A stretch of DNA of 64,000 nucleotides from Sphingorhabdus pulchriflava. Its GTDB lineage: Bacteria > Pseudomonadota > Alphaproteobacteria > Sphingomonadales > Sphingomonadaceae. The notes under the pieces are model-generated. The model had not been told where the DNA came from. It worked only from the letters and a program-made list of their open reading frames with translations, and searched no databases. The stretch's first letter is position 1. Every line of letters begins with the position of its first letter. Shown one piece after another: positions 1-16,125 of this stretch. Position numbers and translations under genes: made by a program. The stretch is from NCBI RefSeq assembly GCF_003367235.1, contig NZ_QRGP01000001.1, positions 1,178,001-1,242,000 of the forward strand, in the 5' to 3' direction.

Positions 1-440
1 AGCTCATTGGCGTTGCACGACCTGACTTCATGCCCGTTTATGCAGGTGCGCTTGAACTGCTTGTCTATGACGATGCAATGCTGGTGGCTGGCGACGAACC
101 ATTAGACGAATTGTCAATTTCGGGCCCAAGTAGTTTCATCCGCCTTGGTCAGCCGCCGGAACGCATTGCACCTGAGGATGCCGGCCTTCCCCGCCACCCC
201 CCCGAAGCGCTAAAAGGCGGAGATGCGCACTATAATGCCGATGCGCTTCGTCGTCTGCTCTCCGGTACATTGTATACGGAACAGGACCGCGCCTATCGTG
301 ACGCCACACTTTTCAATGCCGCTGCAGCGTTGATTGTAGCGGGGCATTCTAAAAATTGGCGCGATGGCGTTGAAGAGGCTGGCGAAGCCATTGATAAGGG
401 ATTGGCGAAGGCGCTGCTCGAATGTTGGGTTCGTTTTTGA
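1..440 (+). CDS. trpD: Anthranilate phosphoribosyltransferase, 3' part (TrpD)
   Basis: C-terminal part of TrpD, which joins anthranilate to PRPP in tryptophan synthesis; the 5' part lies outside the window. The open frame runs in from base 3 (LIGVARPDFM). Family landmarks are an LDELSISGP segment, GGDAHYNADALRRLL, and the final AYRDATLFNAAAALIVAG helix with an EAIDKG tail, as in TrpD C-termini. The stop at 438-440 overlaps the next start at 422. In related genomes trpC usually follows directly (family knowledge); here trpC is about 10 kb away. Confidence 0.85.
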   Translation, partial: LIGVARPDFMPVYAGALELLVYDDAMLVAGDEPLDELSISGPSSFIRLGQPPERIAPEDAGLPRHPPEALKGGDAHYNADALRRLLSGTLYTEQDRAYRDATLFNAAAALIVAGHSKNWRDGVEEAGEAIDKGLAKALLECWVRF

Positions 441-979
441 AGTCCGTTTTTACAAAACATATTTGCCTTCACGGTCCGGAAAGTACGGGCAAGTCGACCC
501 TAGCAACTCGGTTGGCTGCGCATTTCGGGTGCGAGGTCGTCCCCGAATATGGCCGCGCTTATTGCGAGGCACATGGCACCAACATCGGAATGGCGGAACT
601 GGTTCATATCGCCGAAGCACAGGATAGCATGAATAGGGCGGCGGCAGAGCGAGGAGCGGAATTGAGCGCGCCGTTGGTGCTGTTCGATACCGATCCATTG
701 ATTACTGAAGTCTGGGCGCAAATGATGTTTGAGCATAGCGATCCGTGGTTTGCCGGTTTCAATGGCTATGCCGATCTATACCTCCTGCTCGATATCGATC
801 TGCCCTTTGTCAACGATGGTTTGCGCGTTTATGCGAAAATGGAGGAAAGGCAGCACTTCTTTGCATTGTGTAAATCTGAACTGGATGCGCGTGGTGTCCG
901 CTATGCTTTGGTTCGCGGAATTGGCGATGCGCGCTTTGCTGCCGCGCTCGATGCAATTCAGAAAGTTCTGGCGAATTGA
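422..979 (+). CDS. NadR-like AAA ATPase / nicotinamide riboside kinase-type protein
   Basis: A 185-aa P-loop protein of the NadR kinase-domain (AAA_28) type, which in NadR phosphorylates nicotinamide riboside. A Walker A motif, HGPESTGKST, lies near residues 17-26. It is followed by EYGRAYCE and a FDTDPLITEVWA segment typical of this group. There is no adenylyltransferase domain, so only the kinase-like half is present. The ATG at 422 overlaps trpD by 19 bases; a TTG at 437 is another possible start. No pnuC transporter is in view, so the link to NAD salvage is family-based. It reads straight into the DUF1289 gene (stop TGA, then ATG with no gap). Confidence 0.8.
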   Translation: MLGSFLKSVFTKHICLHGPESTGKSTLATRLAAHFGCEVVPEYGRAYCEAHGTNIGMAELVHIAEAQDSMNRAAAERGAELSAPLVLFDTDPLITEVWAQMMFEHSDPWFAGFNGYADLYLLLDIDLPFVNDGLRVYAKMEERQHFFALCKSELDARGVRYALVRGIGDARFAAALDAIQKVLAN

Positions 980-1168
980 ATGGATGACATTGCATCGCCT
1001 TGCATCAAGATTTGCACTATTGATCCGACTGGACAGTGGTGTCTCGGCTGCGGTCGGACATTGGTTGAAATTTCTGGCTGGCTACGCGCAGATCGCGCGC
1101 AGAGGCTGGAAATACTGGCGAAACTGCCGATCCGACTTATACGTCTGAACCAGAAACTGGCGGACTAG
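980..1168 (+). CDS. DUF1289 family small Cys-rich protein
   Basis: A 62-aa protein of the DUF1289 (YdhL-like) family. It carries the family Cys pattern: SPCIKICTID at residues 6-15, then WCLGCGRT near 21-28, followed by a short W/L-rich helix. Four Cys suggest a small metal site; the function is unknown. The ATG directly abuts the TGA of the preceding kinase-like gene, so the two are probably co-translated. Its 3' end overlaps the convergent ABC-F gene by 4 bases. Confidence 0.8.
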   Translation: MDDIASPCIKICTIDPTGQWCLGCGRTLVEISGWLRADRAQRLEILAKLPIRLIRLNQKLAD

Positions 1169-3033
1169 CCCAACGCTTCCAGAGCCTCGCTTGCGGATAT
1201 CCAGCGTGCTTCTGCGGCCTCCTGTGCGGCTACAATCTTTCCGCGCCGCTGCGACAATTCGCCCATTGTCAGGTCTTTATATTCGCTCGAAGCGGATTGC
1301 GGATCGAACATCGCTTTATCAATCGCGGACAGCACGACTTCCAGCTTTGCCAGATCAGCCTCGGCATCGTTTACTTCGCGTTTCAGCTTTGCCTGCGCTT
1401 CACGCGCCGCTGCCGCGGTCTTCTTGTCTTCCTTCCGGTCAGCTTTTGAAAGCTTTTCCTTGGCGGGGCCTCTGCCTAGAATGAAGTCGGTATAATCCTC
1501 GATCGACCCGGAAAATTCCTTCGCCGTCCCACCGTCGACCAACACCAACCTGTCTGCCGTCAGCTCGAGCATGTGCCGGTCGTGACTGACCAGCACGACG
1601 GTACCAGCATATTCGTTCAAAGCTTGCACCAAAGCTTCACGCGCATCGACGTCCAAGTGGTTGGTCGGTTCGTCGAGGATAAGCATATGCGGCGCCTCAC
1701 GGGTAATCAGAGCCAGCGCCAAACGGGCGCGTTCGCCTCCTGATAGCTTGCCGACCTGCGTGGTCGCCTTCGCGCCAGAAAAGCCGAAGCGCCCTAGTTG
1801 TGCGCGCACCGCACCGGGCGTCGCGCCTTTCATTTGGCGGGTCATATGCTCCAGTGGGGTATCGTCGCCATCCAATTCTTCGACTTGATATTGCGTGAAG
1901 TAACCGACGCGCATCTTGCCCGATGCGTTCATCGAACCCTCCATCGGCGTCAGTTGCGCCGCGAGCAAACGCGCCAATGTCGTCTTGCCGTTGCCATTGC
2001 GACCCAAAAGCGCAATCCGGTCGTCGGGGTCGATACGCAGGTTCAACCGCTGTAGCACCGGGTTGCCCGGGCTATAGCCGACACTGGCCAGATCGAGCGT
2101 GATCAGGGGCGGTTTCAATTCGTCAGGGCTGGGGAAATCGAAACTTAGCGTGGGATCGTCGACCATCGCTTGCACTGGCTGCATTTTTGCAAGCGCCTTG
2201 GCTCGGCTCTGTGCTTGCTTGGCGGTGGAGGCGCGGGCCGAGTTGCGAGCGATATAGTCCTGCAACTTGGCGCGTTGAGCATCCTGTGCCGCCTTGGCCG
2301 CCGCCAATTGTGCAGCCCGTTCGGCGCGCTGGCGCTCAAAACTGTCATAGCCGCCGCTATAAAGCGTCACCTGTCCGCCTTCGAGGTGCAGGATATGGTC
2401 GACGACATTGTTGAGTAGATCGCGCTCGTGGCTGATCACAACCATCATGGCAGGATAGTTTTTGAGGAAGTTTTCGAGCCACAAAGTCGCTTCCAGATCG
2501 AGGTGGTTTGACGGTTCGTCGAGCAGCAACAAATCAGGTTGCGAAAAGAGCAGCGAGGCCAGCGCAACACGCATCTTCCACCCACCCGAGAAACTATCCA
2601 GCGGTTGCCCTTGCATCTCTTCGTCAAAGCCGAGGCCAACCAATATGCGCGAGGCCCGTGCCGGTGCAGTATAAGCGTCGATGGCGATCAGCCGTTCGTG
2701 TACCTCAGCCATCCGGTCTGGATCGAGATCTTCCTGCTCACTTTCGAGCATAAGTGCAGCGCGCTCTGTGTCAGCGGCCAATACGGTTTCAAACGGCGTC
2801 GCGTTGCCCGCTGGCGCCTCCTGCGCGATGTATCCGATTCGCGTCCCTTTGGGCATTTCGAGGCTGCCATCGTCCGCCTCCAGCGAACCGATCATCACCT
2901 TCATCAAAGTCGACTTGCCGGCACCGTTGCGCCCGATCAAACCGATACGGCCATATGGCGGCAGCGCCGCGGTGGCGCGGTCGAGGATAGTGCGTCCGCC
3001 AAGGCGCACGGTGATGCCGTTCAGGTTGAGCAT
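1165..3033 (-). CDS. ABC-F family ATPase (Uup/YheS type)
   Basis: A 622-aa soluble protein with two ATP-binding cassettes and no membrane segments, as in ABC-F factors that act at the ribosome. The first cassette has Walker A GRNGAGKST near residue 35, signature FSGGWKMR and Walker B LLLLDEPSNHLD. The second has GRNGNGKTT, LSGGERARL and MLILDEPTNHLD. Between them is the basic, charged linker of the family. A C-terminal coiled coil (about 540-620, rich in K/E/A) resembles the Uup/YheS tail. The subfamily is not certain, so no symbol is given. It is divergent from lepA with about 90 bases between starts. Confidence 0.92.
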   Translation of the reverse strand: MLNLNGITVRLGGRTILDRATAALPPYGRIGLIGRNGAGKSTLMKVMIGSLEADDGSLEMPKGTRIGYIAQEAPAGNATPFETVLAADTERAALMLESEQEDLDPDRMAEVHERLIAIDAYTAPARASRILVGLGFDEEMQGQPLDSFSGGWKMRVALASLLFSQPDLLLLDEPSNHLDLEATLWLENFLKNYPAMMVVISHERDLLNNVVDHILHLEGGQVTLYSGGYDSFERQRAERAAQLAAAKAAQDAQRAKLQDYIARNSARASTAKQAQSRAKALAKMQPVQAMVDDPTLSFDFPSPDELKPPLITLDLASVGYSPGNPVLQRLNLRIDPDDRIALLGRNGNGKTTLARLLAAQLTPMEGSMNASGKMRVGYFTQYQVEELDGDDTPLEHMTRQMKGATPGAVRAQLGRFGFSGAKATTQVGKLSGGERARLALALITREAPHMLILDEPTNHLDVDAREALVQALNEYAGTVVLVSHDRHMLELTADRLVLVDGGTAKEFSGSIEDYTDFILGRGPAKEKLSKADRKEDKKTAAAAREAQAKLKREVNDAEADLAKLEVVLSAIDKAMFDPQSASSEYKDLTMGELSQRRGKIVAAQEAAEARWISASEALEALG

Positions 3034-3124
3034 GATGGCGCGCGCCTAGCAGAGCCAATAGCAACTGTCATGCAGCGATTGCGCTGCCTTGTGGGGAATG
3101 TCCCGCGCTGCTAGAGGCGCGCGC

Positions 3125-4942
3125 ATGACTGAATTGTCCCACATCCGCAACTTTAGCATTATCGCCCATATTGATCATGGCAAGTCGACCTTGGCGGACC
3201 GGCTAATCCAACATACCGGTGGCCTGTCCGAGCGCGAGATGTCGGCGCAAGTCCTTGATAATATGGACATTGAGAAGGAACGCGGGATCACCATCAAGGC
3301 GCAGACGGTGCGCCTCAACTACACCGCGAATGACGGCCAGCTGTATGAGCTGAACCTGATGGACACCCCCGGCCATGTCGACTTCGCCTATGAAGTCTCG
3401 CGCTCCCTCGCCGCCTGCGAAGGCGCGCTGCTCGTGGTTGATGCAGCCCAAGGGGTCGAGGCCCAAACCCTCGCCAATGTGTACCAGTCGATCGAGCATG
3501 ACCATGAAATCGTCCCCGTCATCAACAAGATCGACCTGCCCGCCGCAGAGGTGGACAAGGTGAAGGCCGAAATCGAGGAAATCATCGGCCTCCCCGCCGA
3601 TGACGCGGTCCTCACCAGCGCCAAATCCGGCATCGGCATCGCCGAGGTGCTTGAGGCGATCGTCACCCGCATCCCCCCGCCCAAGGGCGATCGCACTGCA
3701 CCGTTGAAGGCCATGCTGGTCGATAGCTGGTATGACCCCTATCTGGGCGTCGTCATCCTGATCCGCGTGATCGACGGCGTGATCAAAAAAGGCCAGGAAA
3801 TCCAGTTCATGGCCGCCGGCACCAAACATCTGGTCGACCGCGTCGGCTGCATGCGGCCCAAGCTGGAAATCCTCACCGAAATCGCCGCGGGCGAAGTCGG
3901 CATCATCACCGCACAGATCAAGGAAGTCGCGCAAACCCGCGTGGGTGATACGATCACAGACGCCAAGCGCCCCGCGGCAGAGCCCCTGCCCGGCTTCAAG
4001 GAAGTGCAGCCGGTGGTGTTCTGCGGCCTCTTCCCCACCGACGCCGCGGATTTCGAGAAGCTGCGCGAATCTATCTCCAAGCTGCGCCTCAACGACGCGT
4101 CGTTCAGTTTCGAAACCGAAAGCAGCGCCGCATTGGGCTTTGGCTTTCGTTGCGGCTTTCTGGGGCTGCTCCATCTGGAAATCATCCAGGAACGCCTATC
4201 CAGAGAGTTTGACCTAGATCTGATCACCACCGCGCCGTCGGTGGTTTACAAGCTGAAACTCAGCCGCAGCAAGACCGACGATGCGCGCGAGATGGAGCTG
4301 CACAACCCGGCGGACATGCCCGATGTGAACCGCATTGACGAGATTCAGGAACCCTGGATCGAGGCGACGATTTACTGCCCCGACGAATATCTGGGATCGA
4401 TCCTGAAGCTATGCCAGGACAGGCGCGGCGTGCAGAAGCAGCTGACCTATGTCGGCGGCCGCGCCCAGCTCGTCTACGAACTGCCCTTGAACGAAGTGGT
4501 GTTCGATTTTTACGACCGGCTGAAGAGCATCTCCAGAGGCTATGCGAGCTTTGATTACCACCAGATCGGCCACCGCGAGGGCGACCTTGTCAAGATGAGC
4601 ATCCTCGTCAATGGAGACCCGGTCGACGCGCTGAGCATGATCGTCCACCGCGGCACCGCGGAGGCGCGCGGGCGCGGCATGTGCGAGCGCCTGAAAGACC
4701 TGATCCCCCGCCACCTGTTCAAAATCCCCATTCAGGCGGCGATCGGCGGCAAGGTGATCGCACGCGAAACCATCGCCGCGATGCGCAAGGATGTGACCGC
4801 CAAATGCTATGGCGGCGATATTTCGCGCAAGAAGAAGCTGTTGGAAAAGCAGAAGAAGGGGAAGGCGCGGATGAGAGAGTATGGCAGCGTGTCGATCCCG
4901 CAGGAGGCGTTTATTGCTGCGCTTCGCATGGGCGAAGAGTAA
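3125..4942 (+). CDS. lepA: Elongation factor 4 (LepA), translational GTPase
   Basis: A 605-aa GTPase that binds ribosomes and back-translocates or helps initiation. G motifs are [13 protein letters not shown] near residue 15, DTPGHVDF and NKIDLP. The family CTD ends with [18 protein letters not shown] and a [11 protein letters not shown] tail. The ATG at 3125 gives [13 protein letters not shown], matching usual LepA N-termini; an upstream in-frame ATG at 3089 is unlikely. Length is normal. Its last 160 bases recur at 5502-5706 as a broken copy that differs almost only at synonymous sites. Confidence 0.97.
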
Positions 4943-5019
4943 CCGCTTTTTCCGCTTGCGCTGCGTGATGCGCCTGTCAAAATATTGCGGGGTGGTTTGG
5001 CGAGACAGGGAGAATAGCC

Positions 5020-5484
5020 ATGCACAAAATGGGATCATCGGTCCTGATCGGCGCAGTTGCAATTGTCATGGCCAGCGCGGCCCACGCACAATTTGATCTG
5101 GCCCGTGCGCAAAAATGCAGCGCCGTGGGGATGGATTGGGAAAAGGCGAACAAGGCGGGCTATCCCGGACGGCGAAAGGCGTTAAAGGCCGTAGTCGATG
5201 CGGCAAAGGCCGACCCTGTCATCGGTGCATGTTTCAGCGAGAAAATCCAGAAAGACCTTGGTATTGCGGCAATGAACAGCTCCGCCATTCAGGGCTGGGC
5301 CGCCGTGATCAAGACCAGCACAAACAATCTGACTGCCGCCCAAGAGCAAGCCGCCGCCGACCAATGCCCGGCCAGCACATTGGTGATCGCAGGATGGAAC
5401 GCCTTTTACGCTGGGCGCAGGGACATCAGCACCGCCATCGACAAAAGCGCGCAGGATAAGCATAAAGCGTTGTGCGGGGCGTAG
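5020..5484 (+). CDS. Small exported protein of unknown function
   Basis: A 154-aa protein not recognised by family. Residues 1-23 form a clear Sec signal peptide (hydrophobic core SVLIGAVAIVMASA, cleavage after AHA), so it should be periplasmic. The mature part is helical and Ala-rich, with four Cys near residues 33, 70, 116 and 152 that could form disulfides. It lies between the intact lepA and the decayed lepA tail, so it probably arrived with the event that made this duplication. An in-frame second ATG four codons on is an alternative start. Confidence 0.75.
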   Translation: MHKMGSSVLIGAVAIVMASAAHAQFDLARAQKCSAVGMDWEKANKAGYPGRRKALKAVVDAAKADPVIGACFSEKIQKDLGIAAMNSSAIQGWAAVIKTSTNNLTAAQEQAAADQCPASTLVIAGWNAFYAGRRDISTAIDKSAQDKHKALCGA

Positions 5485-5501
5485 GCGGCGGAAGTCGATC
5501 G

Positions 5502-5706
5502 CTGCGCAAGGATGTGACCGCCAAATGCGGAGCCTGCCCCGGCGGAAGCGAAGCTGGCCGAAGGCCTACGCGGGGGCGGCGACATTTCGCGCAAGAAGAA
5601 GCTGTTGGAGAAGCAGAAGAAGGGGAAGGCGCGGATGAGGGAGTATGGCTCGGTCTCGATCCCTCAGGAAGCGTTTATTGCGGCGCTGAGGATGGGAGAG
5701 GAATAA
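5502..5706 (+). pseudogene. Remnant of lepA 3' end, second diverged copy
   Basis: This stretch repeats the final 160 bases of lepA (4782-4942). It starts with the codons for RKDVTAKC and ends with those for [16 protein letters not shown] and TAA. After the insert it differs from the intact copy at about a dozen and a half positions, all synonymous by my reading, so both copies were once under selection as real lepA genes. A 46-base insert (5529-5574) replaces 3 bases and shifts the frame. The TAA overlaps the ATG of the next gene (TAATG), which suggests this copy is the original neighbour of that gene. Confidence 0.88.
5529..5574. repeat. Short G+C-rich insert in lepA remnant
   Basis: A 46-base block replaces three bases of the lepA-like sequence. 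It begins with GGAGCCTGCCCCGGCGGAAG and contains GGCCGAAGGCC, a local palindrome. It is unlike the LepA coding sequence on either side and looks like a small dispersed element of the kind scattered through some sphingomonad genomes (inference). I saw no second copy in this window. Confidence 0.45.
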
Positions 5707-5888
5707 TGGGCAAGACGATCTTTGAGCGGCACAAGCAACCGTGGACCGCATCGGAGATCGACAAGCTCCACACTCTGGCGAAAAAAGGCATCGGTCTCAA
5801 AGCCGTCGCAAAGGCGCTAACCCGCAGTGAAGAGTCGGTCAGGGACCGCTCTAAGGCCGACGGCATTGTTTTGGCGAAGCTGCGGTAG
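5706..5888 (+). CDS. 60-aa SANT/Myb-like or GcrA-like helical protein
   Basis: A short protein whose body (WTASEIDKLHTLAKKGIGLK, then AVAKALTRSEESVRDRSK) looks like a SANT/Myb-type or other tri-helical DNA-binding fold, with Trp13 and spaced helices. No family name is certain. The ATG at 5706 overlaps the TAA of the lepA remnant. A longer open frame starting at 5472 is rejected because its N-terminal part is shifted lepA sequence. Translational coupling to an ancestral lepA is likely. Confidence 0.65.
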   Translation: MGKTIFERHKQPWTASEIDKLHTLAKKGIGLKAVAKALTRSEESVRDRSKADGIVLAKLR

Positions 5889-5936
5889 GTCGAAGAGTGA
5901 ATTGGCACTTTCACCTGTCCAGTTTCTCGCTAGCGG

Positions 5937-6881
5937 CTACCAAATATTAGGTAAAGCCGAAGCTACAGCTCTAAAGAGCGGAGGTGGAACAGCATTCCCG
6001 ACCACCTGATATTTAAATTTTAATCCTGCCGTGTCTGGAAATTGAAGGTCTCGCTTAAATCCTTGTAGTCGTGCAGTTTCACGATAAGACAGCCGCCGCG
6101 CTGGACCGTCGTACTTGAATCTCCATTCATCGGTATGAACCCTTTCCAACGGGGGGCTTACTGGATGAAGTCCTACGTGTCGGCTATTTGCAACAACTGT
6201 TCGGGCTTGTTCGTTCCAGCCCCGCCAACGGTTCCGGGAAAGATAATACCAGTGAAAGGGCTGAGTATCATACTCTCCTTCGGGCCATAACGGCAAATCA
6301 CCGATAGCATCACGTATCGTAGGGCAAGAGATCGTCCCGTCGACCAAGTTAATTGAGTGGGTAGGCTCGGGAAATTGGTATCGCTGTCCGAGATCGCTCC
6401 GAATGCCAACGAAAAACAAGCGTGTTCGCTCTTGCGGAACGCCATAGTCGATCGCGCTCAAAAGCTTGTGTTCGACCCGATAGCCTGCCGAACGAAACCG
6501 TATCAATTGATTTCGTAGTAAGTGTAGGTGCCCGCTTCGAGTCATTCCGGCTACGTTTTCGACGATAAAAGCCTTAGGGCGGACTTGACGAAGTGCTCTA
6601 TCGAATTCTCTGTAAAGATAGTTGATTTTGCGGTTCGGGTCCCGGACGCCGCCCATACTGAAGCCTTGGCAGGGATAACAACCCACTAACAAGTCAGCTT
6701 TTGGAAATGCTTTCACTCCGGCGACATCACCAAGTACGTAATCAGTCTCTGGTAAATTAGCGTTGTAGAGGTCTTTAGCGTAGGACGTGATGTCGTTAGC
6801 CATCAACACATCGAAACCAGCGTCAATCAAACCTGAATCGCTTCCGCCACAACCGGTAAACAATGAAACCGCAGTGGGCAT
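5937..6881 (-). CDS. DNA (cytosine-5-)-methyltransferase
   Basis: A 314-aa m5C methyltransferase. Motif I is SLFTGCGGSDSGL at the N-terminus. Motif IV holds the catalytic Cys in GCYPCQGFS, motif VI is FIVENVAGM, motif VIII includes QERTRLFFVGIR, and motif X is VVGNAVPP. The target recognition region lies between about 190 and 260, and its target site cannot be read from sequence. The start at 6881 is preferred over an ATG at 6932 because GGGGAG lies just ahead of it and motif I follows at once. It is the last gene of a three-gene minus-strand set with the PD-(D/E)XK-like and ParB-like genes. Base composition is lower in GC than the flanks. Confidence 0.93.
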   Translation of the reverse strand: MPTAVSLFTGCGGSDSGLIDAGFDVLMANDITSYAKDLYNANLPETDYVLGDVAGVKAFPKADLLVGCYPCQGFSMGGVRDPNRKINYLYREFDRALRQVRPKAFIVENVAGMTRSGHLHLLRNQLIRFRSAGYRVEHKLLSAIDYGVPQERTRLFFVGIRSDLGQRYQFPEPTHSINLVDGTISCPTIRDAIGDLPLWPEGEYDTQPFHWYYLSRNRWRGWNEQARTVVANSRHVGLHPVSPPLERVHTDEWRFKYDGPARRLSYRETARLQGFKRDLQFPDTAGLKFKYQVVGNAVPPPLFRAVASALPNIW

Positions 6882-6961
6882 AGTTTTCTCCCCGAAGATT
6901 TCGTTTGGCCTGTAGCGTAAATAACGTTTCAATCCACAAATTTCGAAATCTGAAATTCGGG

Positions 6962-7918
6962 TTATCCGGCATCCTCCAGCTGCGGTAACACTAATTTTGA
7001 TAGCTCATCCATCTGAGGGATCCGTTCGTTAAACTCTACTCTCCCGCAAGCTGCATCGGCAAGGATCGAAAGTCGCGCTCGGTCAAAAACTAATCCCGCT
7101 CTCCGGGATGCTTCACCGAGAAAGCCATCGGCGACATGATAGGGAGTGGCGAAGGCAAAAAGAGGTTCAATATAAGAGAGCGGGTTAAACCATTTCCTAT
7201 ACCGTTTTAGATCGGCATCGTTGAATTTTTCGGTCCAATCATCGCCGCAAGCACATTGACCGAGCACAAATGCGCTTCCTATGCGTTGATCCGGTGGTTT
7301 GGCCCAGACTATGAAGTCGACGCCTTCATCTCCTGTGTGGGTCACATCAGTCGGTAAGTCCGGGTCAGGGCTCCAAATAAACTCGCCTGTCATCAAATGA
7401 GCATCTCTCATTGCAGCGCCAAACTGAGAATGCCCATCAGGTTGTCGTGGAGAACCAACATGAAACGACTTTGCATAGGGACCAAAAAACTCTTGCACTA
7501 ACAATGCGCACAGGCGCTCAAACAGCCTTGGAAAGCCTACGTTCGCGCCAGAAGTAATTTGTTCGGCGAGAGATGCCGCAAGACAAAACTCATAAAATCC
7601 GCTGTTACTTTTTGTATAAACCAGAGAACCGCCGTCTAGTTGGAACGGATAAGATGCGCCCATTATAGCAACACGGCGCTCAATTTCTTCTCGAGCCTGT
7701 CCGACCGCACTATCAAATGCGAGGTCATCTCGTTCCCATCTTTCGACATCTGCGTCAGCACCCACGTCGTAGTCATCCATCGCATCTGCGACACGGTCGT
7801 CATAAACGCCTTGGTCAACAATAGCGCTTGTACTGGCAATGGCAGCAAATTCGGCTTGATCGGCATTCTTAACTAGTTTTTGGAAGGCATGGCGCTGTGA
7901 ATACACATCACCTCTCAT
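6962..7918 (-). CDS. PD-(D/E)XK-like putative restriction endonuclease
   Basis: A 318-aa protein without a sure family. Residues 196-231 hold GDEGVDFIVW, then after a spacer VLGQCACGDDWTEK. This resembles a PD-(D/E)XK nuclease core with D201 and Q221; the usual Lys of the QxK position is Ala, and K231 may take over (inference). The N-terminal 90 residues are acidic and helical. Its ATG overlaps the TAA of the ParB-like gene (TAATG), and the methyltransferase gene follows 80 bases on. Context points to the cutting or effector part of a modification-linked defence system. It could instead be a DNA-binding specificity factor. Confidence 0.6.
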   Translation of the reverse strand: MRGDVYSQRHAFQKLVKNADQAEFAAIASTSAIVDQGVYDDRVADAMDDYDVGADADVERWERDDLAFDSAVGQAREEIERRVAIMGASYPFQLDGGSLVYTKSNSGFYEFCLAASLAEQITSGANVGFPRLFERLCALLVQEFFGPYAKSFHVGSPRQPDGHSQFGAAMRDAHLMTGEFIWSPDPDLPTDVTHTGDEGVDFIVWAKPPDQRIGSAFVLGQCACGDDWTEKFNDADLKRYRKWFNPLSYIEPLFAFATPYHVADGFLGEASRRAGLVFDRARLSILADAACGRVEFNERIPQMDELSKLVLPQLEDAG

Positions 7919-9060
7919 TAGCTTTCCCCTCTCGCCGCTGCTTCGACACGCTTTGCAATATCTTCGGCGGTGCGTCTGTTAATGTTGGAAAGTCCGACGA
8001 GAGACTCCGCTAATTCCATTTCGAGCTGTTGTTCAGAAATTCCTGAAACAATTTCGCTTTGGAGTGAACGGACTTCAGACAATCCCTCTCGCAGCCGATC
8101 TTCGATTGGTTTTGTAAGGCGGGCGATTTCCGCAACAGATTTTCCATTTTCGAGAAGCGATATTTTATCTGGATCGGAAAAAACCGAGGCTAGATCACCC
8201 AATTCTCGCGAATCTTGGATCGCCGCACTGCGCCCCTTGGATGCATCTCCGAACATAGCTCTTGCAACGACACCCGCACGTCGAAGATTTGCTTCAGGAA
8301 CTAAAAGTTTCTTAGGCTCACCATCATCTAAGCCAAGATATGATCGAGCAGCAGTGTAACCCAAAAATGTGTAAACCCAAGAAAACGGATATTCAGCGAT
8401 GCTTCCTCGACCTCGCCTCAAACTGTCACTAGGTCTAAATTCGCCCGCTGCCTCGGCCTGTTTTACGAAATAAAAACCTTCCAACATTCGTTTAATAGTG
8501 TTGTGCTTGTCTCCGATCATCAAGGCTACATCCGCCAGTGGCAGTGAGTTTTCCTCGACAACTTGAGCTACCCATGCGGCTTTCGCATAGGAATCCCACC
8601 CCTGCGACGACGCGATATGACGAACGCCTAAATAAGATAACAACGACTTTTTCTGATCTTTACCTTCAAAAACGATAGCTGGTATCGGATCAATTGACTT
8701 TGACCCATGCGCAACCCATCGCTCATTGTACTCCAAGTGCCTAGCTCTGTGGCGAGATGCTCTCTCGTCTCCAGCAATTATCAGGCAGGCTGCAAGTCTG
8801 CGGTTGCCTTCCATAACAATCGCGTGGCGACTACCCGGCTCTCTTCGACAGACTATTGGCTCTGCTGGCATGTATCCATTAATCGATAGCGAACTCAACA
8901 CATCGTCCACACCAAAGGTTTTTACAATATGATCGAGGACGTCCGCTTGTTCTAATTTCGGACTTGAGGCTCCTGCAAATCTTGGATTTTCCGCATCGAG
9001 TAATAGTTCTGAGAGTGCTATTGGTTCGCTCTTTTTCGAATCCAGAGTGTCTTCTGTCAT
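7918..9060 (-). CDS. ParB/Srx-fold protein of putative defence operon
   Basis: A 380-aa protein with an N-terminal ParB/sulfiredoxin-like domain: ALSELLLDAENPRF near residue 15, NGYMPAEPI near 61, and EGNRRLAA at 84-91. These correspond to ParB nucleotide-binding boxes. A central helical part contains an HTH-like LADVALMIGDKHNTIKRML stretch around 190. The C-terminus (300-380) is a predicted coiled coil. The start at 9060 is set by GGAGG five bases upstream; a TTG four codons earlier lacks this. First gene of the island, it may bind DNA and CTP/ATP and direct or control the next two proteins. It is not a chromosome-partition ParB, since there is no parA and no KorB-type layout. Confidence 0.8.
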   Translation of the reverse strand: MTEDTLDSKKSEPIALSELLLDAENPRFAGASSPKLEQADVLDHIVKTFGVDDVLSSLSINGYMPAEPIVCRREPGSRHAIVMEGNRRLAACLIIAGDERASRHRARHLEYNERWVAHGSKSIDPIPAIVFEGKDQKKSLLSYLGVRHIASSQGWDSYAKAAWVAQVVEENSLPLADVALMIGDKHNTIKRMLEGFYFVKQAEAAGEFRPSDSLRRGRGSIAEYPFSWVYTFLGYTAARSYLGLDDGEPKKLLVPEANLRRAGVVARAMFGDASKGRSAAIQDSRELGDLASVFSDPDKISLLENGKSVAEIARLTKPIEDRLREGLSEVRSLQSEIVSGISEQQLEMELAESLVGLSNINRRTAEDIAKRVEAAARGES

Positions 9061-9163
9061 CCGTTCCTCCAAGGTGTTGATGTTAGAGCGATGTTATAGC
9101 GCCAGCAATATTCAACCTTATGCTCAAGACTGCTGTTGTTTACAAGCAACCCTGACACTGACC

Positions 9164-10294
9164 TCACCCCTCCGGCAAATAGGTCTCCCCTTCCCCCGGG
9201 TCCTCGCTCTCCGTCCGTCGCCCCTCGCGCCACTCCTGTTCCTGTGCCAGCCTTTGCCGCCAATTCTGGTTGGCGGGCTTGGTCGCGGCGGTGCGGGCGG
9301 CTTGGTCGGCCTCTAAATCCGCCTCGGTGAGATAAAAGGGCAATGCGGGGCGGGTGTAGGGTTTGGGGGTGTCGTTTTCCTCCTCCGCTGAGGCTAGGGC
9401 GGACGAGCCCGCTTCTCCAAGGGCAAGGGCGTCGGCGCTTTCCTTTTCCCACGCCTCGTGCCGCACCGCCTCCATCGCGCGGCTGATATAGGTGCTCCAC
9501 GGGCCGCCATGGCGGGCCTGATGGAAATGGTCTCGGATGATCTCCAGGCTCGCGCCGCCGACATCGAGCACAACCTCCAGCTGCGCCAATTGCCGCAGCG
9601 CGAAATCGGCGGCGATGGCGTTACCGGCCATGCGGAAATGATGTTCTTCGCGCACCTTGGCCGCATATTTTTTCAGGATGCGCTCGATCGTGGCGGCTGT
9701 GCTGTTCTGCTCGGCCGCCTCCTGCGCCTCGCGATCGGCGGCATTTTGGGCGGCTTCCTCCTCCCACTCCTTGCGCCATTCTTCCTTCAGCTTTTGCAGG
9801 CCGTGCGGCAGGCTGCTCGCCGGGCGGGCGGAGAGATTGAGGTTGCCGCCATAGAGTTCCGGAAAGCGTTGCTGGACGATCCACATCATGCTGCGCGTGT
9901 TGAACTTGCGCCGTTCGAGGATGACCTTGCCATCCTTCAGCAGCTTTTCCGGCGTGCCGTGGATGGCATGATCCATCAGCGTATCGAGCACGCGGCGCGC
10001 GCCCATCTCTATCGCTGTATCCCATGCGGCGGCAAAGCTTTCCGCGCCCTCCGCCCGTTTGAGGCTGTAGAGCGCGGTGTCGCTCGCGCCGATGGCGGTG
10101 GCCGACATCTCCACACTGCCATTGACCGACAGATAGGCGATGAAGGCGCGTTGCCGCATCGGGGTGAGCCCGTTGGAGCGCAGCTTCTTGCGCGGCACGG
10201 GGGTGAAGGCGAGCGTGGGGGGCAGGTCTTCGGGATCGATTTCGAAGCGTTCAGGTTCGGGTTCGTCTTCGGGGGGGAGTATCTCTTGAGCCAT
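9164..10294 (-). CDS. Terminase small subunit-like HTH protein
   Basis: A 376-aa protein with a helix-turn-helix region near residues 40-110 (LTPMRQRAFIAYL, GSVEMSATAIGASDTALY, FAAAWDTAIEMG). This pattern is common in a sphingomonad protein group annotated as terminase-small-subunit-like. Later parts are charged helices (KEEWRKEWEEEAAQ) and a Pro/Glu-rich tail. The start at 10294 follows AAGGAAAAGG; the ATG at 10330 has no such site. No large terminase, portal or capsid gene is nearby, so a phage role is not supported. It may be a DNA-binding regulator. Confidence 0.6.
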   Translation of the reverse strand: MAQEILPPEDEPEPERFEIDPEDLPPTLAFTPVPRKKLRSNGLTPMRQRAFIAYLSVNGSVEMSATAIGASDTALYSLKRAEGAESFAAAWDTAIEMGARRVLDTLMDHAIHGTPEKLLKDGKVILERRKFNTRSMMWIVQQRFPELYGGNLNLSARPASSLPHGLQKLKEEWRKEWEEEAAQNAADREAQEAAEQNSTAATIERILKKYAAKVREEHHFRMAGNAIAADFALRQLAQLEVVLDVGGASLEIIRDHFHQARHGGPWSTYISRAMEAVRHEAWEKESADALALGEAGSSALASAEEENDTPKPYTRPALPFYLTEADLEADQAARTAATKPANQNWRQRLAQEQEWREGRRTESEDPGEGETYLPEG

Positions 10295-10454
10295 GGGCCT
10301 TTTCCTTGCTTCATGAAAAAGGCGGGGCATTTATCGCATGCCGGGGCGTGTAGGACAGCGGTTTTTATGGGGGAGCGGGTGGAGCGGGGAAAATTCTTTG
10401 CGCCGCCTGCCTAAAACTATTTGAACATCGCGTCGTGCGCGCTACCCGCTGCGC

Positions 10455-11242
10455 ATGGCCAATAAATTGGATGAAATATGCGCCACCAAGCGCGACGAGG
10501 TTGCGGCGCGCAAGCTGAGCTATCCTTCGGGGCGGCGGCCAGACTGGGCTGACCCCTCCCCCGTCCGCGGCTTTGAGGCGGCGTTGCGCACAAAGGCGGA
10601 GGGCGGCTTTGCCCTGATTGCGGAGATCAAGAAGGCGAGTCCCTCCAAGGGCTTGATCCGCGCCGACTTTGATCCGGCGGCGCATGCGGCGGCCTATCAG
10701 GCAGGCGGGGCGGCGTGCCTTTCGGTGCTGACCGATGCGCCTTATTTTCAGGGGCATGAGGATTATCTGATCGCCGCGCGCGCGGCGTGCGCGTTGCCGG
10801 TGATCCGCAAGGACTTCATGGTCGACCCTTGGCAATGCGCCGAAGCGCGGGCGATGGGGGCTGACGCGATATTGATCATCGTTGCCGCACTTGAGGATGT
10901 AGCGATGGTTGAGATTGAGGCGGCGGCACGCGAGCACGACCTCGACGTGCTGGTCGAGGTGCATGATGAGGCCGAGATGGAGCGCGCGCTCACCCGGCTG
11001 CAGTCCAAGCTGATCGGGGTGAACAACCGCAATCTCAAGACCTTCGAGGTCGATCTCGCCACCACCGAGCGGTTGGCGGGCATGGTGCCTGAAGATGTGC
11101 TGTTGGTCTGCGAAAGCGGGATTTCCTCACACGCCGATTGCGTGCGGATGGCGCAAAGCGGGGTGCGGACTTTCCTGGTCGGGGAGAGCCTGATGCGGCA
11201 GGCGGATGTTGCTGCGGCGACGCATCTGCTATTGAACGGCGC

Positions 11243-11246
<4 letters not shown>
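10455..11246 (+). CDS. trpC: Indole-3-glycerol phosphate synthase (TrpC)
   Basis: A 263-aa TIM-barrel enzyme that closes the indole ring in tryptophan synthesis. It shows [12 protein letters not shown] near residue 54 (catalytic Lys), [31 protein letters not shown] and VCESGI, all IGPS signatures. Length is normal. It overlaps moaC by ATGA, starting a trpC-moaC-moeA run. trpD, its usual upstream neighbour, ends at position 440, about 10 kb away. The 160 bases upstream must supply a promoter; I could not pick clear -35/-10 boxes there. Confidence 0.96.
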
Positions 11247-11709
<463 letters not shown>

Positions 11710-11713
<4 letters not shown>

Positions 11714-12891
11714 TTTCGGTTGAAGAAGCGCAGGCGCGGATATTGGCGCTGAAGGAGCCGGTTGAGACTGAACGCGTAGCTCTGGCCGAGGCTGCCGGGC
11801 GCTGGGCGGCGGAGGATGTCGTGGCGCTGCGCACCCAGCCTGCGCGCGATCTGTCGGCCATGGATGGCTATGCGATCCGCTTTGCCGATGCTGCGGGTCC
11901 GTGGACGGTCATTGGCGAAAGCGCAGCGGGCAAACAGTTTACAGACAATGTCAGTGCTGGTGAAGCGGTGCGCATCTTCACCGGTGCCGTCGTTCCCGAA
12001 GGCGCTGACACTATCATCATTCAAGAAAATGTCTCGCGTGAGGGCGACCTTGTCACGCTAACGGACGAAGCGCCCAAAAAGGCAGGGCAAAATGTGCGCT
12101 ATGCCGGTGGCGATTTTGCAGAGGGCACGGTCGTCGTGCCAAAAGGCGCTGAGTTGCACGCCCGCCACGTCGCGCTGGCCGCCATGGCGGGGCATGGCGA
12201 ACTGACCGTACACCGCAAATTGAAGGTCGCGCTGGTCTCGACGGGCAATGAGCTGGTAGCACCGGGTGCGCGCTGTGCCGAAGATCAGATACCGGCGTCG
12301 AACGGCGTGATGCTGGCCGCCATGCTGCGCGGACTGCCCGTCGAGCTAAGCGAGTTTCCCGCGGTCGAGGATAATCTGGAAGTACTTACACAGCAGTTCC
12401 GCGCGCTTGCCGACCATGACATCATCGTCACCACCGGCGGAGCATCTGTGGGCGATCACGACCTGATCGTACCCGCGCTGAAAGCGGCGGGTGGCGAGAT
12501 TGTCTTCTGGAAAATCGCCATGCGCCCCGGCAAGCCGGTGATTGCAGGCCGATTGGGTGCAGCGGTCACACTCGGGTTGCCGGGCAATCCCGTGTCAGCC
12601 TTCGTCACTGCCATGCTCTATCTGCGCCCTCTGATCGCACATCTTTGTGGAGCAGCAGACCCGTTGCCACAGCGACTCACCGCGCCGACAGGCGTCGATC
12701 TGGCCGCCAATGGTCCGCGTACCGACCATCTGCGGGCAAAGCTGGTCGATGGCATGTTGGTCCCGGTTGGCGTCAATGACAGCGCCATGTTGGCCGCCCT
12801 GTCAGAGGCTAACGCATTGATAATACGCCCTGCCAATACCGGATTCACTGCGGCGGGCGAACGGGTTGACTATTACCCGCTGCAAATCTGA
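11710..12891 (+). CDS. moeA: Molybdopterin molybdenumtransferase (MoeA)
   Basis: A 393-aa protein that inserts molybdate into adenylylated molybdopterin. Family marks are [14 protein letters not shown] near residue 45, a [12 protein letters not shown] stretch, [24 protein letters not shown] near 240, and KPVIAGRLG with [13 protein letters not shown]. The C-terminal domain IV is present. It overlaps moaC by ATGA. Transcription probably ends before the lexA promoter region that begins about 20 bases downstream. Confidence 0.95.
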
Positions 12892-12913
12892 AAGCGGCGC
12901 TTTGTAACTCCGC

Positions 12914-12942
12914 TTGACAACACCCCTCTTTGTTTCCTAATC
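12914..12942 (+). promoter_or_regulatory. Probable lexA promoter
   Basis: TTGACA at 12914-12919 is a consensus -35. About 16-17 bases on lies CCTAAT/CTAATC (12936-12942), a fair -10. The SOS box starts at 12943, so LexA bound there would cover the start of transcription. Confidence 0.55.
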
Positions 12943-12957
12943 GTTCCACATCTGTTC
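12943..12957 (+). promoter_or_regulatory. LexA (SOS) box
   Basis: GTTC-CACATCT-GTTC exactly fits the alphaproteobacterial SOS box GTTC-N7-GTTC. It lies 20 bases before the lexA start and right behind the -10 element, so lexA should repress itself. Confidence 0.88.
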
Positions 12958-12976
12958 AACCAGGCAGGAACAAACC

Positions 12977-13681
12977 ATGTTGACCTCCAAACAGCACGCG
13001 CTTTTGATGTTCATCCACGAACGCCTTGAAACGTCCGGCGTTTCTCCATCTTTTGAGGAAATGAAAGAGGCGCTCGATCTCAAGAGCAAATCGGGCGTGC
13101 ATCGGCTGATAGGCGCTTTGGAAGAGCGCGGTTTCCTCCGTCGCCTTCCCAATCGCGCCCGCGCATTGGAAGTGGTCAAAATGCCCGATGGTGGCAGCGC
13201 CCGTTCGCTTTCGCAAAATGAGGCGGTCAATGCCAAGGTCGCGAATATCGCCGATCATCGCCCTGCCCTAGCCAAGACATTGCCGGTGGCTGCGAACGAC
13301 GTCATCGAAATCCCGCTGCATGGAAAGATCGCTGCCGGTGTTCCGATCGAAGCACTTGAAGGACAAAATTCGCTTTCGGTGCCAATGGCTTTGCTGGGTT
13401 CGGGTGAACATTATGCGCTCGAAGTATCCGGCGACTCGATGGTCGAGGCAGGCATTCTCGATGGCGACTATGCGCTGATCCGCAAAACCCAGACCGCGCG
13501 CGATGGCGAAATCGTGGTGGCATTGGTTCGTGGGGAAGAAGCGACGCTCAAATATCTTCGCCGTGAAAATGGCCGCATCCGGCTTGATCCGGCGAACAGC
13601 AGCTATGACCCGCAATATTATGATGCCAATGAGGTTGAGGTGCAGGGGCGGCTCGCTGGCCTGCTTCGCCGCTACCACTGA
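12977..13681 (+). CDS. lexA: LexA repressor, self-cleaving
   Basis: A 234-aa SOS repressor. Residues 1-66 form the winged HTH DNA-binding domain ([20 protein letters not shown], then [19 protein letters not shown]). The linker is long, as in alphaproteobacteria. The cleavage site is A120-G121 within [10 protein letters not shown]. Catalytic Ser154 is in SGDSM and Lys192 in ATLKYL. An SOS box precedes it. Its 3' end overlaps the convergent comEC stop by 10 bases, and its terminator lies inside comEC. Confidence 0.97.
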
Positions 13682-15891
13682 GGTTTCGGCACGACATTTT
13701 TCGAAAGCGGCGGGGCCTCCCTCGCCGCTTTTTCTTTTGCGCGCCGTTCAGCCCGAGCTTGCAGGCGGTGCGGCGCATAGGCCGACCAGGGATGGTGGGC
13801 GTTTTCCTCGGCCACACTGCTAATTCGCGCTTCAGCCAAATAGAATGCCAATCCGCCCGATCGTTCAAGTAATGCAGCATCGGCCTTTAACCAATGCGGC
13901 TTGCAGCTCCAGGGCAGCCGCCTGCTGCTGATGACAATATCGCTCCGCCGACACGCCGCCGCCAATTCCATCGACGGGATCATATAGCCTGAACGCAAGG
14001 CCAATATATGCCAGTGGCGTCCGCCTTTTTGCAGTGCAAATGCACATCCATCCGGATTGCAAACTGCACCGGGCATATCGTCCAGTGCCATAGCCTCTTC
14101 CCCGATTGCCGCTGTTTCTCCCAGGATGGAGCGGGTATATTCCCCTGCCCTTGGTCGAAGCAAAGCCAGTTGTCCGTCGCCATATATGACCGCCAGATGC
14201 TGGCCATCACCGGTCAACAACATATCGGGACGCGGGGCGCTGAGCATGGCTATGGATGCGAATAGCATCGGTCCCAGCGCCAACCATCGCCAGCGCGACC
14301 CGAATATCGCGATGGCCAAGCCGGACAGCATTGCCGTTCCAAATGCCCAAACCGGCATTTCGGGCAAAAGAGCAACTGCGCCTGGGGCCGCGCTCACCAA
14401 ATGAGCAATCCATAAAATTGCTGTGATGCCCTGCTTTGCCACCCACCAAAAAGGTGTCCCCAACCCTGACCAAAGGAAATCGGCCAAAAGTCCCAGCAAC
14501 TGCGCGGGCATGACCAGAAATGTTGTCAAGGGAATGGCCGCAATGTTCGCAAACGCACCATAAAGGCCGCTTTTGTGAAAATGAAACAAGGCAATCGGGG
14601 CCAGCACCAATTCAATGGCCAGGCCCGTTAGCAGCAATCCAAATAATTGCCGCGCCATGCGAGAGAATAATCCCTCTTCGCGCCGCTGCATCCAGTACCG
14701 CATCCAGGCGCTATCATGCAAAATGATGATGGTTCCAACCGCCGCAAAGCTCAGCTGAAAGCTTGGCCCTGCCAGCGCCTCTGACCAGAAAAGCAAGACA
14801 AAAGTGGCACCGGCGGCAAGCAGACGCAGGGACAACGCGTCTCGTCCCATTGCCAAAGCGACAAGAATGAGCAGAGCTGCGATACAGGCGCGAACGGTTG
14901 GCACCTCCGCCCCGGTCAACAAGGTATAAAGTATTGCGATGGTGGCTGCACAGGCGGCCGACGCCAGCGGCACCGATACCCGCAAAGCCAGCCAGGGCCA
15001 TAGCGCCAGCAGACTTGCGACCAATATAAAGGTTCCGCCTACGACAGCGGTCACATGCAGCCCACTGACCGACAAAAGATGCGCCATTCCCGAATTGCGG
15101 AGTGCCTCCGCATCGGCTTCATCAATACTGCCGCGTGTGCCGACCAGCAAAGCGCTACCGACCGGGCCGGTTTCAGCGCCCATCGCAACCTGAATCCGCG
15201 TCGACAGTGCGTTGCGGGCGCTGTTCCAGAAATCCTGCCGGTCGAGCGGCGGAGACAGGATGCGAACAGGCCCCAATATCCTGCCGGTTGCACCTATTCC
15301 GCCAAACCATGCTGTCCGTGCGAAATCATAACTTCCCGGCAAGGCGGGCCCGGGTGGCGGCATCAATCGTACCTTGAACTTGATGACGCTTCCCGGATTG
15401 ATTTCAGGTGAGGCAAGCTGCTTGTCAATATTCACCCGGATGATCGGAGGTAGTTCCGGATGCTGACCGACATATATTCGGTAACGGACAATATCGCGGG
15501 CCGACACATCCTCGATGCTTTCGACACGCCCGTGCAGCGTGCCAATCCATGGCCTTTCCAGCGCTGAAGCGCCGTACAGCCATGATTTCAATGTTATGGC
15601 GCCATAGCCCATTCCAACCAAAAAGGCACCGATGAGCATCAGCCCCTTCAACCGCGACGAAGGGCCAATCGACAGTCCGAGCAATGCTGCTCCAGCGCAG
15701 GCGCTGGCGACCAACCACCCCTGTTCCGCGCCAAAAACCTGCCAGATCGAAATTCCAAGACCCAACGCGACTGGAATCAATAGCGGAAGGCGTTCCTGTT
15801 CGGATTCCAGCCAGATATCGACGGTGGAAAGCCATTTGCTGCCCGAATGGTCGGCTGTGATCGATATGGGTTCATCGATAGCAAATTGCAT
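13672..15891 (-). CDS. comEC: ComEC/Rec2-type DNA uptake channel protein
   Basis: A 739-aa integral membrane protein of the ComEC/Rec2 family, which carries transforming DNA across the inner membrane. N-terminal membrane segments and a DUF4131-like domain (about 35-190) precede the competence domain with [11 protein letters not shown]-type and [15 protein letters not shown] motifs near residue 240. Many further membrane helices follow up to about 540. The soluble C-terminus starts at [17 protein letters not shown], but no metallo-beta-lactamase HxHxDH motif is present. ATG at 15891 is chosen over a TTG at 15927. The tail is Lys/Arg/Ala-rich and contains the lexA terminator. Confidence 0.9.
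13704..13738 (+). terminator. Rho-independent terminator of lexA, inside comEC
   Basis: AAGCGGCG (13705-13712) pairs with CGCCGCTT (13723-13730), an 8-bp stem with a 10-base loop, followed by TTTCTTTT. It stands 24 bases after the lexA stop and falls within the coding end of comEC on the other strand. Confidence 0.85.
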
Positions 15892-16125
15892 GTTGCGGCC
15901 AGCCCTGAAACCAGTGCCCCACCACAAAGTCTGTTATGCTTGTGTTTCAACGAGAAACAAGCCGTTTTCGATACCCTTGACGCGCCGCACAAAACTGCGC
16001 AAGGAAGCCGCGACAAGGGGCATATTCCGACCTCGGTCTTGCTATGCCTGTATTTTCGTCTCCCGCCTCTTGTGAGGCTGCCAAAACTATAAAAACAACC
16101 GGATTTGGCGGTTTGACAGGAGTAA

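What the first reader, a model, noticed from the sequence alone, without database searches (positions are those of the whole stretch)
5937..9060. ParB-fold / PD-(D/E)XK-like / cytosine methyltransferase three-gene island
Seen: three minus-strand genes, with a TAATG overlap between the first two, in sequence of lower GC than the flanks. The methyltransferase has all key motifs. The middle protein has a DEGVD...QCACG...TEK core like a degenerate PD-(D/E)XK nuclease. The first has ParB boxes (NGYMPAEPI, EGNRRLAA) plus a C-terminal coiled coil. Known: methyltransferase and nuclease pairs are R-M systems, but a ParB/Srx nucleotide-binding protein as the leading gene is unusual. Inferred: the ParB-like protein may be a CTP/ATP-driven clamp that licenses or targets cutting. 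I know no named system with exactly this trio.
Basis: partly seen in the sequence, partly recalled or inferred. Interest (0 to 1): 0.75.

Follow-up and report, generated by a model that had tools for sequence, protein, structure and literature searches.

The report
ParB-like restriction–modification trio from phages
Three neighbouring genes (a ParB-like switch protein, a probable DNA-cutting enzyme and a DNA-methylating enzyme) form a recurring, often phage-borne set that most likely marks the cell's own DNA and attacks unmarked DNA; it resembles restriction–modification and one recently named defence system but combines the parts differently.

Summary
The three genes are real. Of 80 viral contigs found with the ParB-like protein A alone, 79 carry B beside it; 76 have a C5 methyltransferase, one a D12 enzyme, three end at the contig edge. 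The C gene is in 225 of 5,426 E. coli genomes; the E. coli loci opened lie in the P2-phage defence hotspot. A models as a ParB/Noc/KorB fold. B is probably an Mrr/MspJI-like PD-(D/E)XK nuclease, by three weak but concordant lines. C is HaeIII-like, predicted GGCC. A and B evolve as one unit while C varies apart: Wphi and 12474III share C at 98% but A at 33% and B at 21%. Nearest named system: PD-lambda-5, sharing the ParB-type domain and, in sister loci, the methyltransferase, but nothing like B. I judge it an unnamed R-M-like variant of the 'ParB switch + effector + methyltransferase' kind. No activity is measured, and one E. coli genome with C annotated as frameshifted but A and B intact argues against a simple toxic R-M.

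The parts
7918..9060 (-). Gene A: ParB-like protein, 380 aa (ParB-type N-domain with EGNRR motif, HTH-like middle, helical C-terminus)
   Evidence: Foldseek to ParB/Noc/KorB, best E 8.7e-6, prob 1.00; model pLDDT 92.5; phrog_3694 E 1.4e-80; EGNRR in 51 of 51 aligned rows
6962..7918 (-). Gene B: probable Mrr/MspJI-like PD-(D/E)XK nuclease, 318 aa
   Evidence: phrog_14650 E 1.5e-57; Foldseek top PDB hit MspJI 4f0p E 2e-3, prob 0.98; profile hit to the same protein E 0.074; BFVD top hits named restriction endonuclease; D201, Q221, C222 in 57 of 57, K231 in 56 of 57
5937..6881 (-). Gene C: cytosine-5 DNA methyltransferase, 314 aa, HaeIII-like, predicted target GGCC
   Evidence: PF00145 E 7.1e-58; M.HaeIII 1dct E 1.5e-46 with aligned target-recognition region; three Arg equivalents kept in 76 of 76 rows scoring 350 bits or more
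7918..7920 (-). Overlap of the A stop and B start (TAATG), suggesting translational coupling
   Evidence: A-B gap of 20 nt or less in 79 of 80 loci counted there
3089..4942 (+). lepA, left flank; its 3' side varies between relatives
5500..5706 (+). Second, partial and diverged copy of the lepA 3' end (88% over 132 nt), between lepA and the trio
9164..10330 (-). Right flank: terminase-small-subunit-like gene, also near lepA in relatives with (L101, L102) and without (L139) an A-B module
   Evidence: phrog_4044 E 2.9e-8; relatives

Best explanation
The island is a three-gene restriction-modification-like anti-phage system, probably of phage origin. C methylates a short site (predicted GGCC) on resident DNA. 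A, a ParB-fold protein with a nucleotide-binding-type motif and an HTH-like region, forms a unit with B and senses or loads on DNA that lacks the mark. B, an Mrr/MspJI-like PD-(D/E)XK enzyme, then cuts that DNA. Shown by computation: the conserved gene set, the A fold, A-B co-evolution, other methyltransferase classes in place of C in sister loci, and the phage-hotspot location. Inferred: nucleotide binding by A, cutting by B, methylation-dependent discrimination, and defence itself.
For: A-only viral search: 80 loci, B adjacent in 79, C5 methyltransferase in 76, D12 in one (L030), three cut at the contig end. A-B gap of 20 nt or less in 79 of 80 loci, window included. Identity correlation A-B 0.98 against A-C 0.46 over 56 non-redundant trios. 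The A-B module sits beside D12 (5), N6/N4 (1) or C5 (1) methyltransferases in the 7 extended bacterial loci that hold A+B: a marking enzyme of changing specificity is what R-M predicts. A fold ParB. B nuclease-like by three routes. GGCC-contact Arg equivalents kept in 76 of 76. P2 portal/replication-endonuclease location in five opened records, both flank genes present in 40 of 80 viral loci; that place is reported to hold defence systems (PMC9519451, passages).
Against: No activity is known. B's fold matches are weak (no PDB or BFVD hit at E 1e-3 or better; Pfam Mrr_cat in 2 of 57 members, best E 0.019). The usual Lys two after Q is Gly/Ala in 56 of 57, so B may be catalytically dead or use K231. 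The window's own A matches neither ParB_N nor GmrSD_N in Pfam. One E. coli genome has C annotated as frameshifted with A and B intact (2-nt insertion), which a toxic restriction module should not tolerate, unless it is an assembly error. No special GGCC avoidance (O/E 0.80 trio, 0.85 flanks). Three A-B pairs (L004 twice, L005) have no methyltransferase of the three classes within 2.5 kb. The seven seed A proteins of the viral scan all had B beside them, so 79 of 80 describes this A subfamily only.
Confidence: 0.62

Rival explanations
1. Abortive-infection version: methylation by C is a self-marker, and A-B is a sensor-effector pair that kills or stalls the infected cell when phage DNA or anti-restriction is sensed, as proposed for PD-lambda-5 (R-M plus Abi).
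For: PD-lambda-5 shares the ParB-type domain (E 4.2e-12) and, in the D12 versions, the methyltransferase family (E 6.7e-86); its authors call it a compacted R-M + Abi system (passage). A-like halves are joined to an AAA_21/AAA_15 ATPase in PDC-M38A proteins, so A seems to serve several effectors.
Against: B resembles a DNA restriction enzyme rather than an RNase; no kill phenotype is known.
Confidence: 0.2
2. Anti-restriction or phage-maintenance set: C protects phage DNA from host GGCC-cutting enzymes, and A-B serves phage DNA (replication, packaging or partition).
For: Mostly seen in phages here; A is ParB-like; C alone could protect phage DNA.
Against: No parA-like gene is annotated in the trio regions read; the set is also chromosomal (window, L101, L102); in P2 phages it sits in the cargo hotspot; the methyltransferase class is exchanged.
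Confidence: 0.1
3. Modification-dependent (type IV-like) enzyme: A-B attacks DNA carrying foreign modification, as GmrSD and MspJI do; C is a passenger.
For: B's closest solved relative is MspJI; GmrSD_N is found in 17 of 51 A relatives at E up to 1. That MspJI is modification-dependent is recalled.
Against: A methyltransferase is present in the 77 viral loci not cut before it; a passenger would be lost. C would be a hazard if A-B cut its product.
Confidence: 0.08

Closest known systems
PD-lambda-5 (Vassallo et al. 2022, PMC9519451)
   Same: ParB-type N-domain in the first protein; partner methyltransferase; prophage-borne per the paper. In a sister locus (L101) the partner methyltransferase matches PD-Lambda-5_B at E 6.7e-86.
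   Different: Window A matches the best PD-Lambda-5_A model only over residues 15-168. The B proteins tried match no PADLOC family. The window methyltransferase is C5, not D12.
ParB + HEPN + DNA methylase operons (MAE_28990 type, HEPN survey 2013, PMC3710099)
   Same: Operon of a ParB-like protein, an effector and a DNA methylase (table entry seen).
   Different: The effector there is a HEPN domain; here it looks like a PD-(D/E)XK DNase.
GmrSD type IV restriction enzymes
   Same: ParB/Srx-fold NTPase partner and a nuclease; its DGQQRL motif (passages) resembles EGNRRL of A; GmrSD_N in 17 of 51 A.
   Different: Its nuclease is HNH-type, not Mrr-like. That it has no dedicated methyltransferase is recalled.
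PDC-M38 (PADLOC candidate)
   Same: M38A has an A-like half matching along about 350 residues.
   Different: Joined to an AAA_21/AAA_15 ATPase in the two proteins scanned; no B match in the 15 loci scanned.
HaeIII/BspRI type II R-M
   Same: Of solved structures C is closest to M.HaeIII; a Peduovirus record names its relative BspRI methylase.
   Different: A ParB-like/Mrr-like pair stands where a HaeIII-type endonuclease would be expected.

Membership tests
PD-lambda-5 | First protein matches PD-Lambda-5_A along its length | tested here: not met
   Only residues 15-168 match the best model, E 4.2e-12; for comparison AS1_27 of Marinobacter phage AS1 matches residues 3-404 at 1.4e-42
PD-lambda-5 | Second protein is the PD-Lambda-5_B (D12) methyltransferase | tested here: not met
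   Window C is PF00145 C5 with no PD-Lambda-5_B among the 25 shown hits; met in sister locus L101
PD-lambda-5 | Anti-phage activity | not testable with these tools
Type II restriction-modification | Linked DNA methyltransferase | tested here: met
Type II restriction-modification | Linked endonuclease cutting the same, unmodified site | tested here: inconclusive
   B is nuclease-like at weak significance; its target is unknown
PD-(D/E)XK (Mrr/MspJI-like) nucleases | D...(E/Q)xK active-site pattern | tested here: inconclusive
   D201 and Q221 in 57 of 57; K at Q+2 in 1 of 57 (L030), Gly/Ala in 56; K231 in 56 of 57
PD-(D/E)XK (Mrr/MspJI-like) nucleases | Fold | tested here: inconclusive
   MspJI top, E 2e-3, TM 0.25; BFVD restriction endonucleases top, E 4.6e-3; Mrr_cat in 2 of 57 at E up to 1
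ParB-CTPase fold proteins | ParB fold | tested here: met
   Foldseek E 8.7e-6, prob 1.00; ParB_N in 26 of 51 relatives at E up to 1, best 0.0029, but not in the window's A
ParB-CTPase fold proteins | GERR-type motif | tested here: inconclusive
   Aligned motif is EGNRR in 51 of 51: both Arg kept, the Glu of GERR is Asn
ParB-CTPase fold proteins | NTP binding or hydrolysis | not testable with these tools
   PMC12704722 says nucleotide specificity cannot yet be predicted reliably (section heading)
GmrSD | HNH/DUF1524 nuclease part | tested here: not met
   No such Pfam hit in window A or B nor in the families listed for their relatives (one search shows 25 of 43)
Druantia (DruM) | Neighbouring large druE helicase (recalled) | tested here: not met
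   C scores best on DruM among PADLOC models, but no ORF above 751 aa lies in window 1-16000

The most novel reading that the evidence does not exclude
A is a general nucleotide-gated DNA switch of mobile-element immunity, a ParB-type clamp with Asn in place of the GERR Glu, that loads only where a partner methyltransferase has not marked the DNA and then licenses whichever effector it is paired with: the Mrr-like nuclease here, HEPN or other domains in PD-lambda-5-like systems, an AAA ATPase in PDC-M38A. The trio would then be, as far as I know, the first restriction system in which a ParB-type clamp, not the nuclease or a helicase, reads the mark.
Probability: 0.28. Interest if true: 0.85.

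Novelty: new variant of a known kind. Interest (0 to 1): 0.6.

Why it matters
It would explain an unnamed cargo of P2-like prophages (the C gene is in 225 of 5,426 complete E. coli genomes) and give a compact, laboratory-accessible case of a ParB-fold protein working in restriction. Phage Wphi, whose recorded host is E. coli W ATCC 9637, carries the set, and that strain is described in print as restriction-minus (PMC3032704, passage). The block exchange of A-B against a near-constant methyltransferase also makes an open question testable: what drives restriction modules to diversify when the protected site seems to stay the same.

Tried and rejected
Window B alone against Pfam, NCBIfam, PADLOC and PDB sequences gave nothing useful; relatives were needed. 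An A-B fusion in PDC-M38A: rejected, the second half is an AAA ATPase and gives no B match. GGCC avoidance as a sign of restriction: no signal beyond other palindromes. HEPN in the PD-lambda-5-type protein AS1_27: not recognised by Pfam, so what I say of HEPN rests on papers. My first target-recognition regex (17 of 86) demanded an extra Arg that is not one of the three positions; the column count replaces it. Phage-partition reading: no parA annotated beside the trio in the regions read. The lepA 3' duplication as the trio's attachment site: not supported, the trio lies outside the duplicated pair. C searched in the family: own genome only, 1 of 199 at E 1e-60.

Full report
Observation. The window holds three minus-strand genes, A (7918-9060), B (6962-7918) and C (5937-6881), in DNA of 48.8% GC against 57.6% for the window. 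A and B overlap as TAATG.

Who carries it: phages. A, B and C match phage families phrog_3694, phrog_14650 and phrog_116. tblastn of A against 50,697 phage records found 12; I opened five of these. Wphi, vB_EcoM-12474III and Pseudomonas phage vB_PaeM-D14A show the trio, with A and B in one operon and C facing them; in D14A it lies beside gpD, not in the P2 portal place. MT835579 has two A-B pairs and no C hit; Marinobacter phage AS1 has a PD-lambda-5-like pair. A scan of viral contigs with an alignment of seven A proteins gave 109 relatives, of which the best 80 were kept. All seven seeds had B beside them, so what follows describes this A subfamily. Of the 80 loci, 79 have B next to A on the same strand (L078 ends at A; in L070 B is split). 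A C5 methyltransferase hit is found in 76, some of them of other C5 types with low scores; L030 has a D12 enzyme; L044, L056 and L078 end before the place where it would be. Over the A-like proteins scored in held loci (redundant, L007-L017 replaced by longer stretches), 98 of 102 have B beside them and 92 of those 98 a methyltransferase of three classes within 2.5 kb; the six without are L004 (two pairs), L005, and the cut loci L023, L044 and L056; the four without B are AS1, the cut L078 and two IS-broken E. coli loci. In the 80 viral loci, 61 carry at least one of four P2-type marker genes and 40 have both portal and replication endonuclease.

Who carries it: bacteria. The B profile matched 7 of 296 genomes of the order and 5 of 398 of the phylum, own genome included in both. 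I extended the loci of all nine other genomes: seven hold A+B, L106 has a weak B only, L107 neither. Their methyltransferases are D12 (L099, L100, L101, L102, L105), N6/N4 (L104) and C5 (L103).

What the proteins are. A: the model (pLDDT 92.5) matches ParB, Noc and KorB (best E 8.7e-6, prob 1.00; 21 hits at 1e-3 or better). Pfam finds ParB_N in 26 and GmrSD_N in 17 of 51 relatives at E up to 1; the window's own A matches neither. The motif aligned with GERR of ParB is EGNRR in all 51; it also resembles the DGQQR motif of GmrS (passages). That the Glu of GERR serves CTP hydrolysis is recalled. PMC12704722 reports loss of binding when the motif's Arg is replaced (passage). B: the model (pLDDT 84.4) has MspJI as best PDB match (E 2e-3, prob 0.98, TM 0.25); the sequence profile of B also has MspJI as best PDB match, at the D...Q motif (E 0.074); BFVD's top two hits are named restriction endonucleases. 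None reaches 1e-3, and single members seldom match Mrr_cat (2 of 57, best 0.019). D20, D201, Q221, C222, D279 and R280 are invariant in 57; K231 in 56; the usual catalytic Lys two after Q is Gly or Ala in 56 and Lys in L030. A migrated Lys is my inference. C: of solved structures closest to M.HaeIII. Arg residues aligned with R225, R227 and R243 of M.HaeIII are kept in 76 of 76 C proteins scoring 350 bits or more and in 1 of 9 scoring less (full-length, redundant set). That these residues read GGCC, and that GGCC is the HaeIII and BspRI site, is recalled. Two Peduovirus records call the relative BspRI methylase.

How the parts evolve. Only trios with full-length proteins and a C above 300 bits entered this count, so loci with other methyltransferases were left out: 72 loci, 56 non-redundant. 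Identities of A and B correlate at 0.98, of A and C at 0.46, of B and C at 0.45; medians are 31%, 23% and 68%. Of 248 pairs with C above 80%, 134 have A below 55%; Wphi and 12474III have C 98%, A 33%, B 21%. A-B thus moves as a block beside a slowly changing C. On a quick tree of 68 A proteins the D12 and N6/N4 versions together form one side of a branch (support 98) and at least 7 changes of methyltransferase class are needed; several branches are long and the root is arbitrary, so this is a guide only.

Site of insertion. In 18 same-genus genomes whose lepA region I took (of 37 others with a lepA match) no A, B or C was found within about 14 kb downstream, and the ORFs after lepA differ in number and size. 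In two other genera of the family (L101, L102) a different A-B with a D12 enzyme lies between lepA and a relative of the right-flank gene; in L139 lepA is followed by that gene without the trio. This looks like repeated capture at one site.

Mechanism. I favour an R-M-like defence: C marks, A-B attacks unmarked DNA, with A as nucleotide-dependent reader or loader and B as cutter. Shown are the conserved set, the A fold, the A-B unit and methyltransferase exchange; inferred are nucleotide use, cutting and defence. GGCC is not avoided in carriers more than other palindromes (O/E 0.80 in trios, 0.85 in flanks; CATG 0.67 and GATC 0.75 in trios), which neither helps nor harms. An abortive outcome, as proposed for PD-lambda-5, is the main rival.

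What is known. PADLOC-DB 2.0.0 has no match for the B proteins tried, and only the ParB part of A matches PD-Lambda-5_A. PD-lambda-5 affected all but one phage of its panel and was cloned in a host lacking the mrr region (PMC9519451, passages and one section). The HEPN survey lists ParB-HEPN fusions and a ParB + HEPN + methylase operon (PMC3710099, passages). The P2/P4 hotspot paper does not use the words ParB or methyltransferase in its main text (PMC9122126, find only). Paper searches showed no described trio in the listings I saw; the library lacks most subscription papers and preprints. Verdict: a real, widespread set without a name that I could find, a new variant of the ParB-switch-plus-methyltransferase kind.

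Noticed in passing
window 4779-4942 and 5500-5706: The lepA 3' end is partly duplicated (88% over 132 nt). Short extra copies (44-55 nt) lie downstream of lepA in G672, G688 and G678 of the genus too, suggesting repeated integration at lepA.
   Followed up: partly
[not shown]
   Followed up: no
[not shown]
   Followed up: no
L152 1489-3666 and L154 1489-3663: PDC-M38A proteins join an A-like half to an AAA_21/AAA_15 ATPase: the A module seems to serve different effectors.
   Followed up: partly
[not shown]
   Followed up: partly
L030 5011-8031: D12-A-B set in which B has QCK, the canonical Lys position filled; a good first choice for biochemistry.
   Followed up: no
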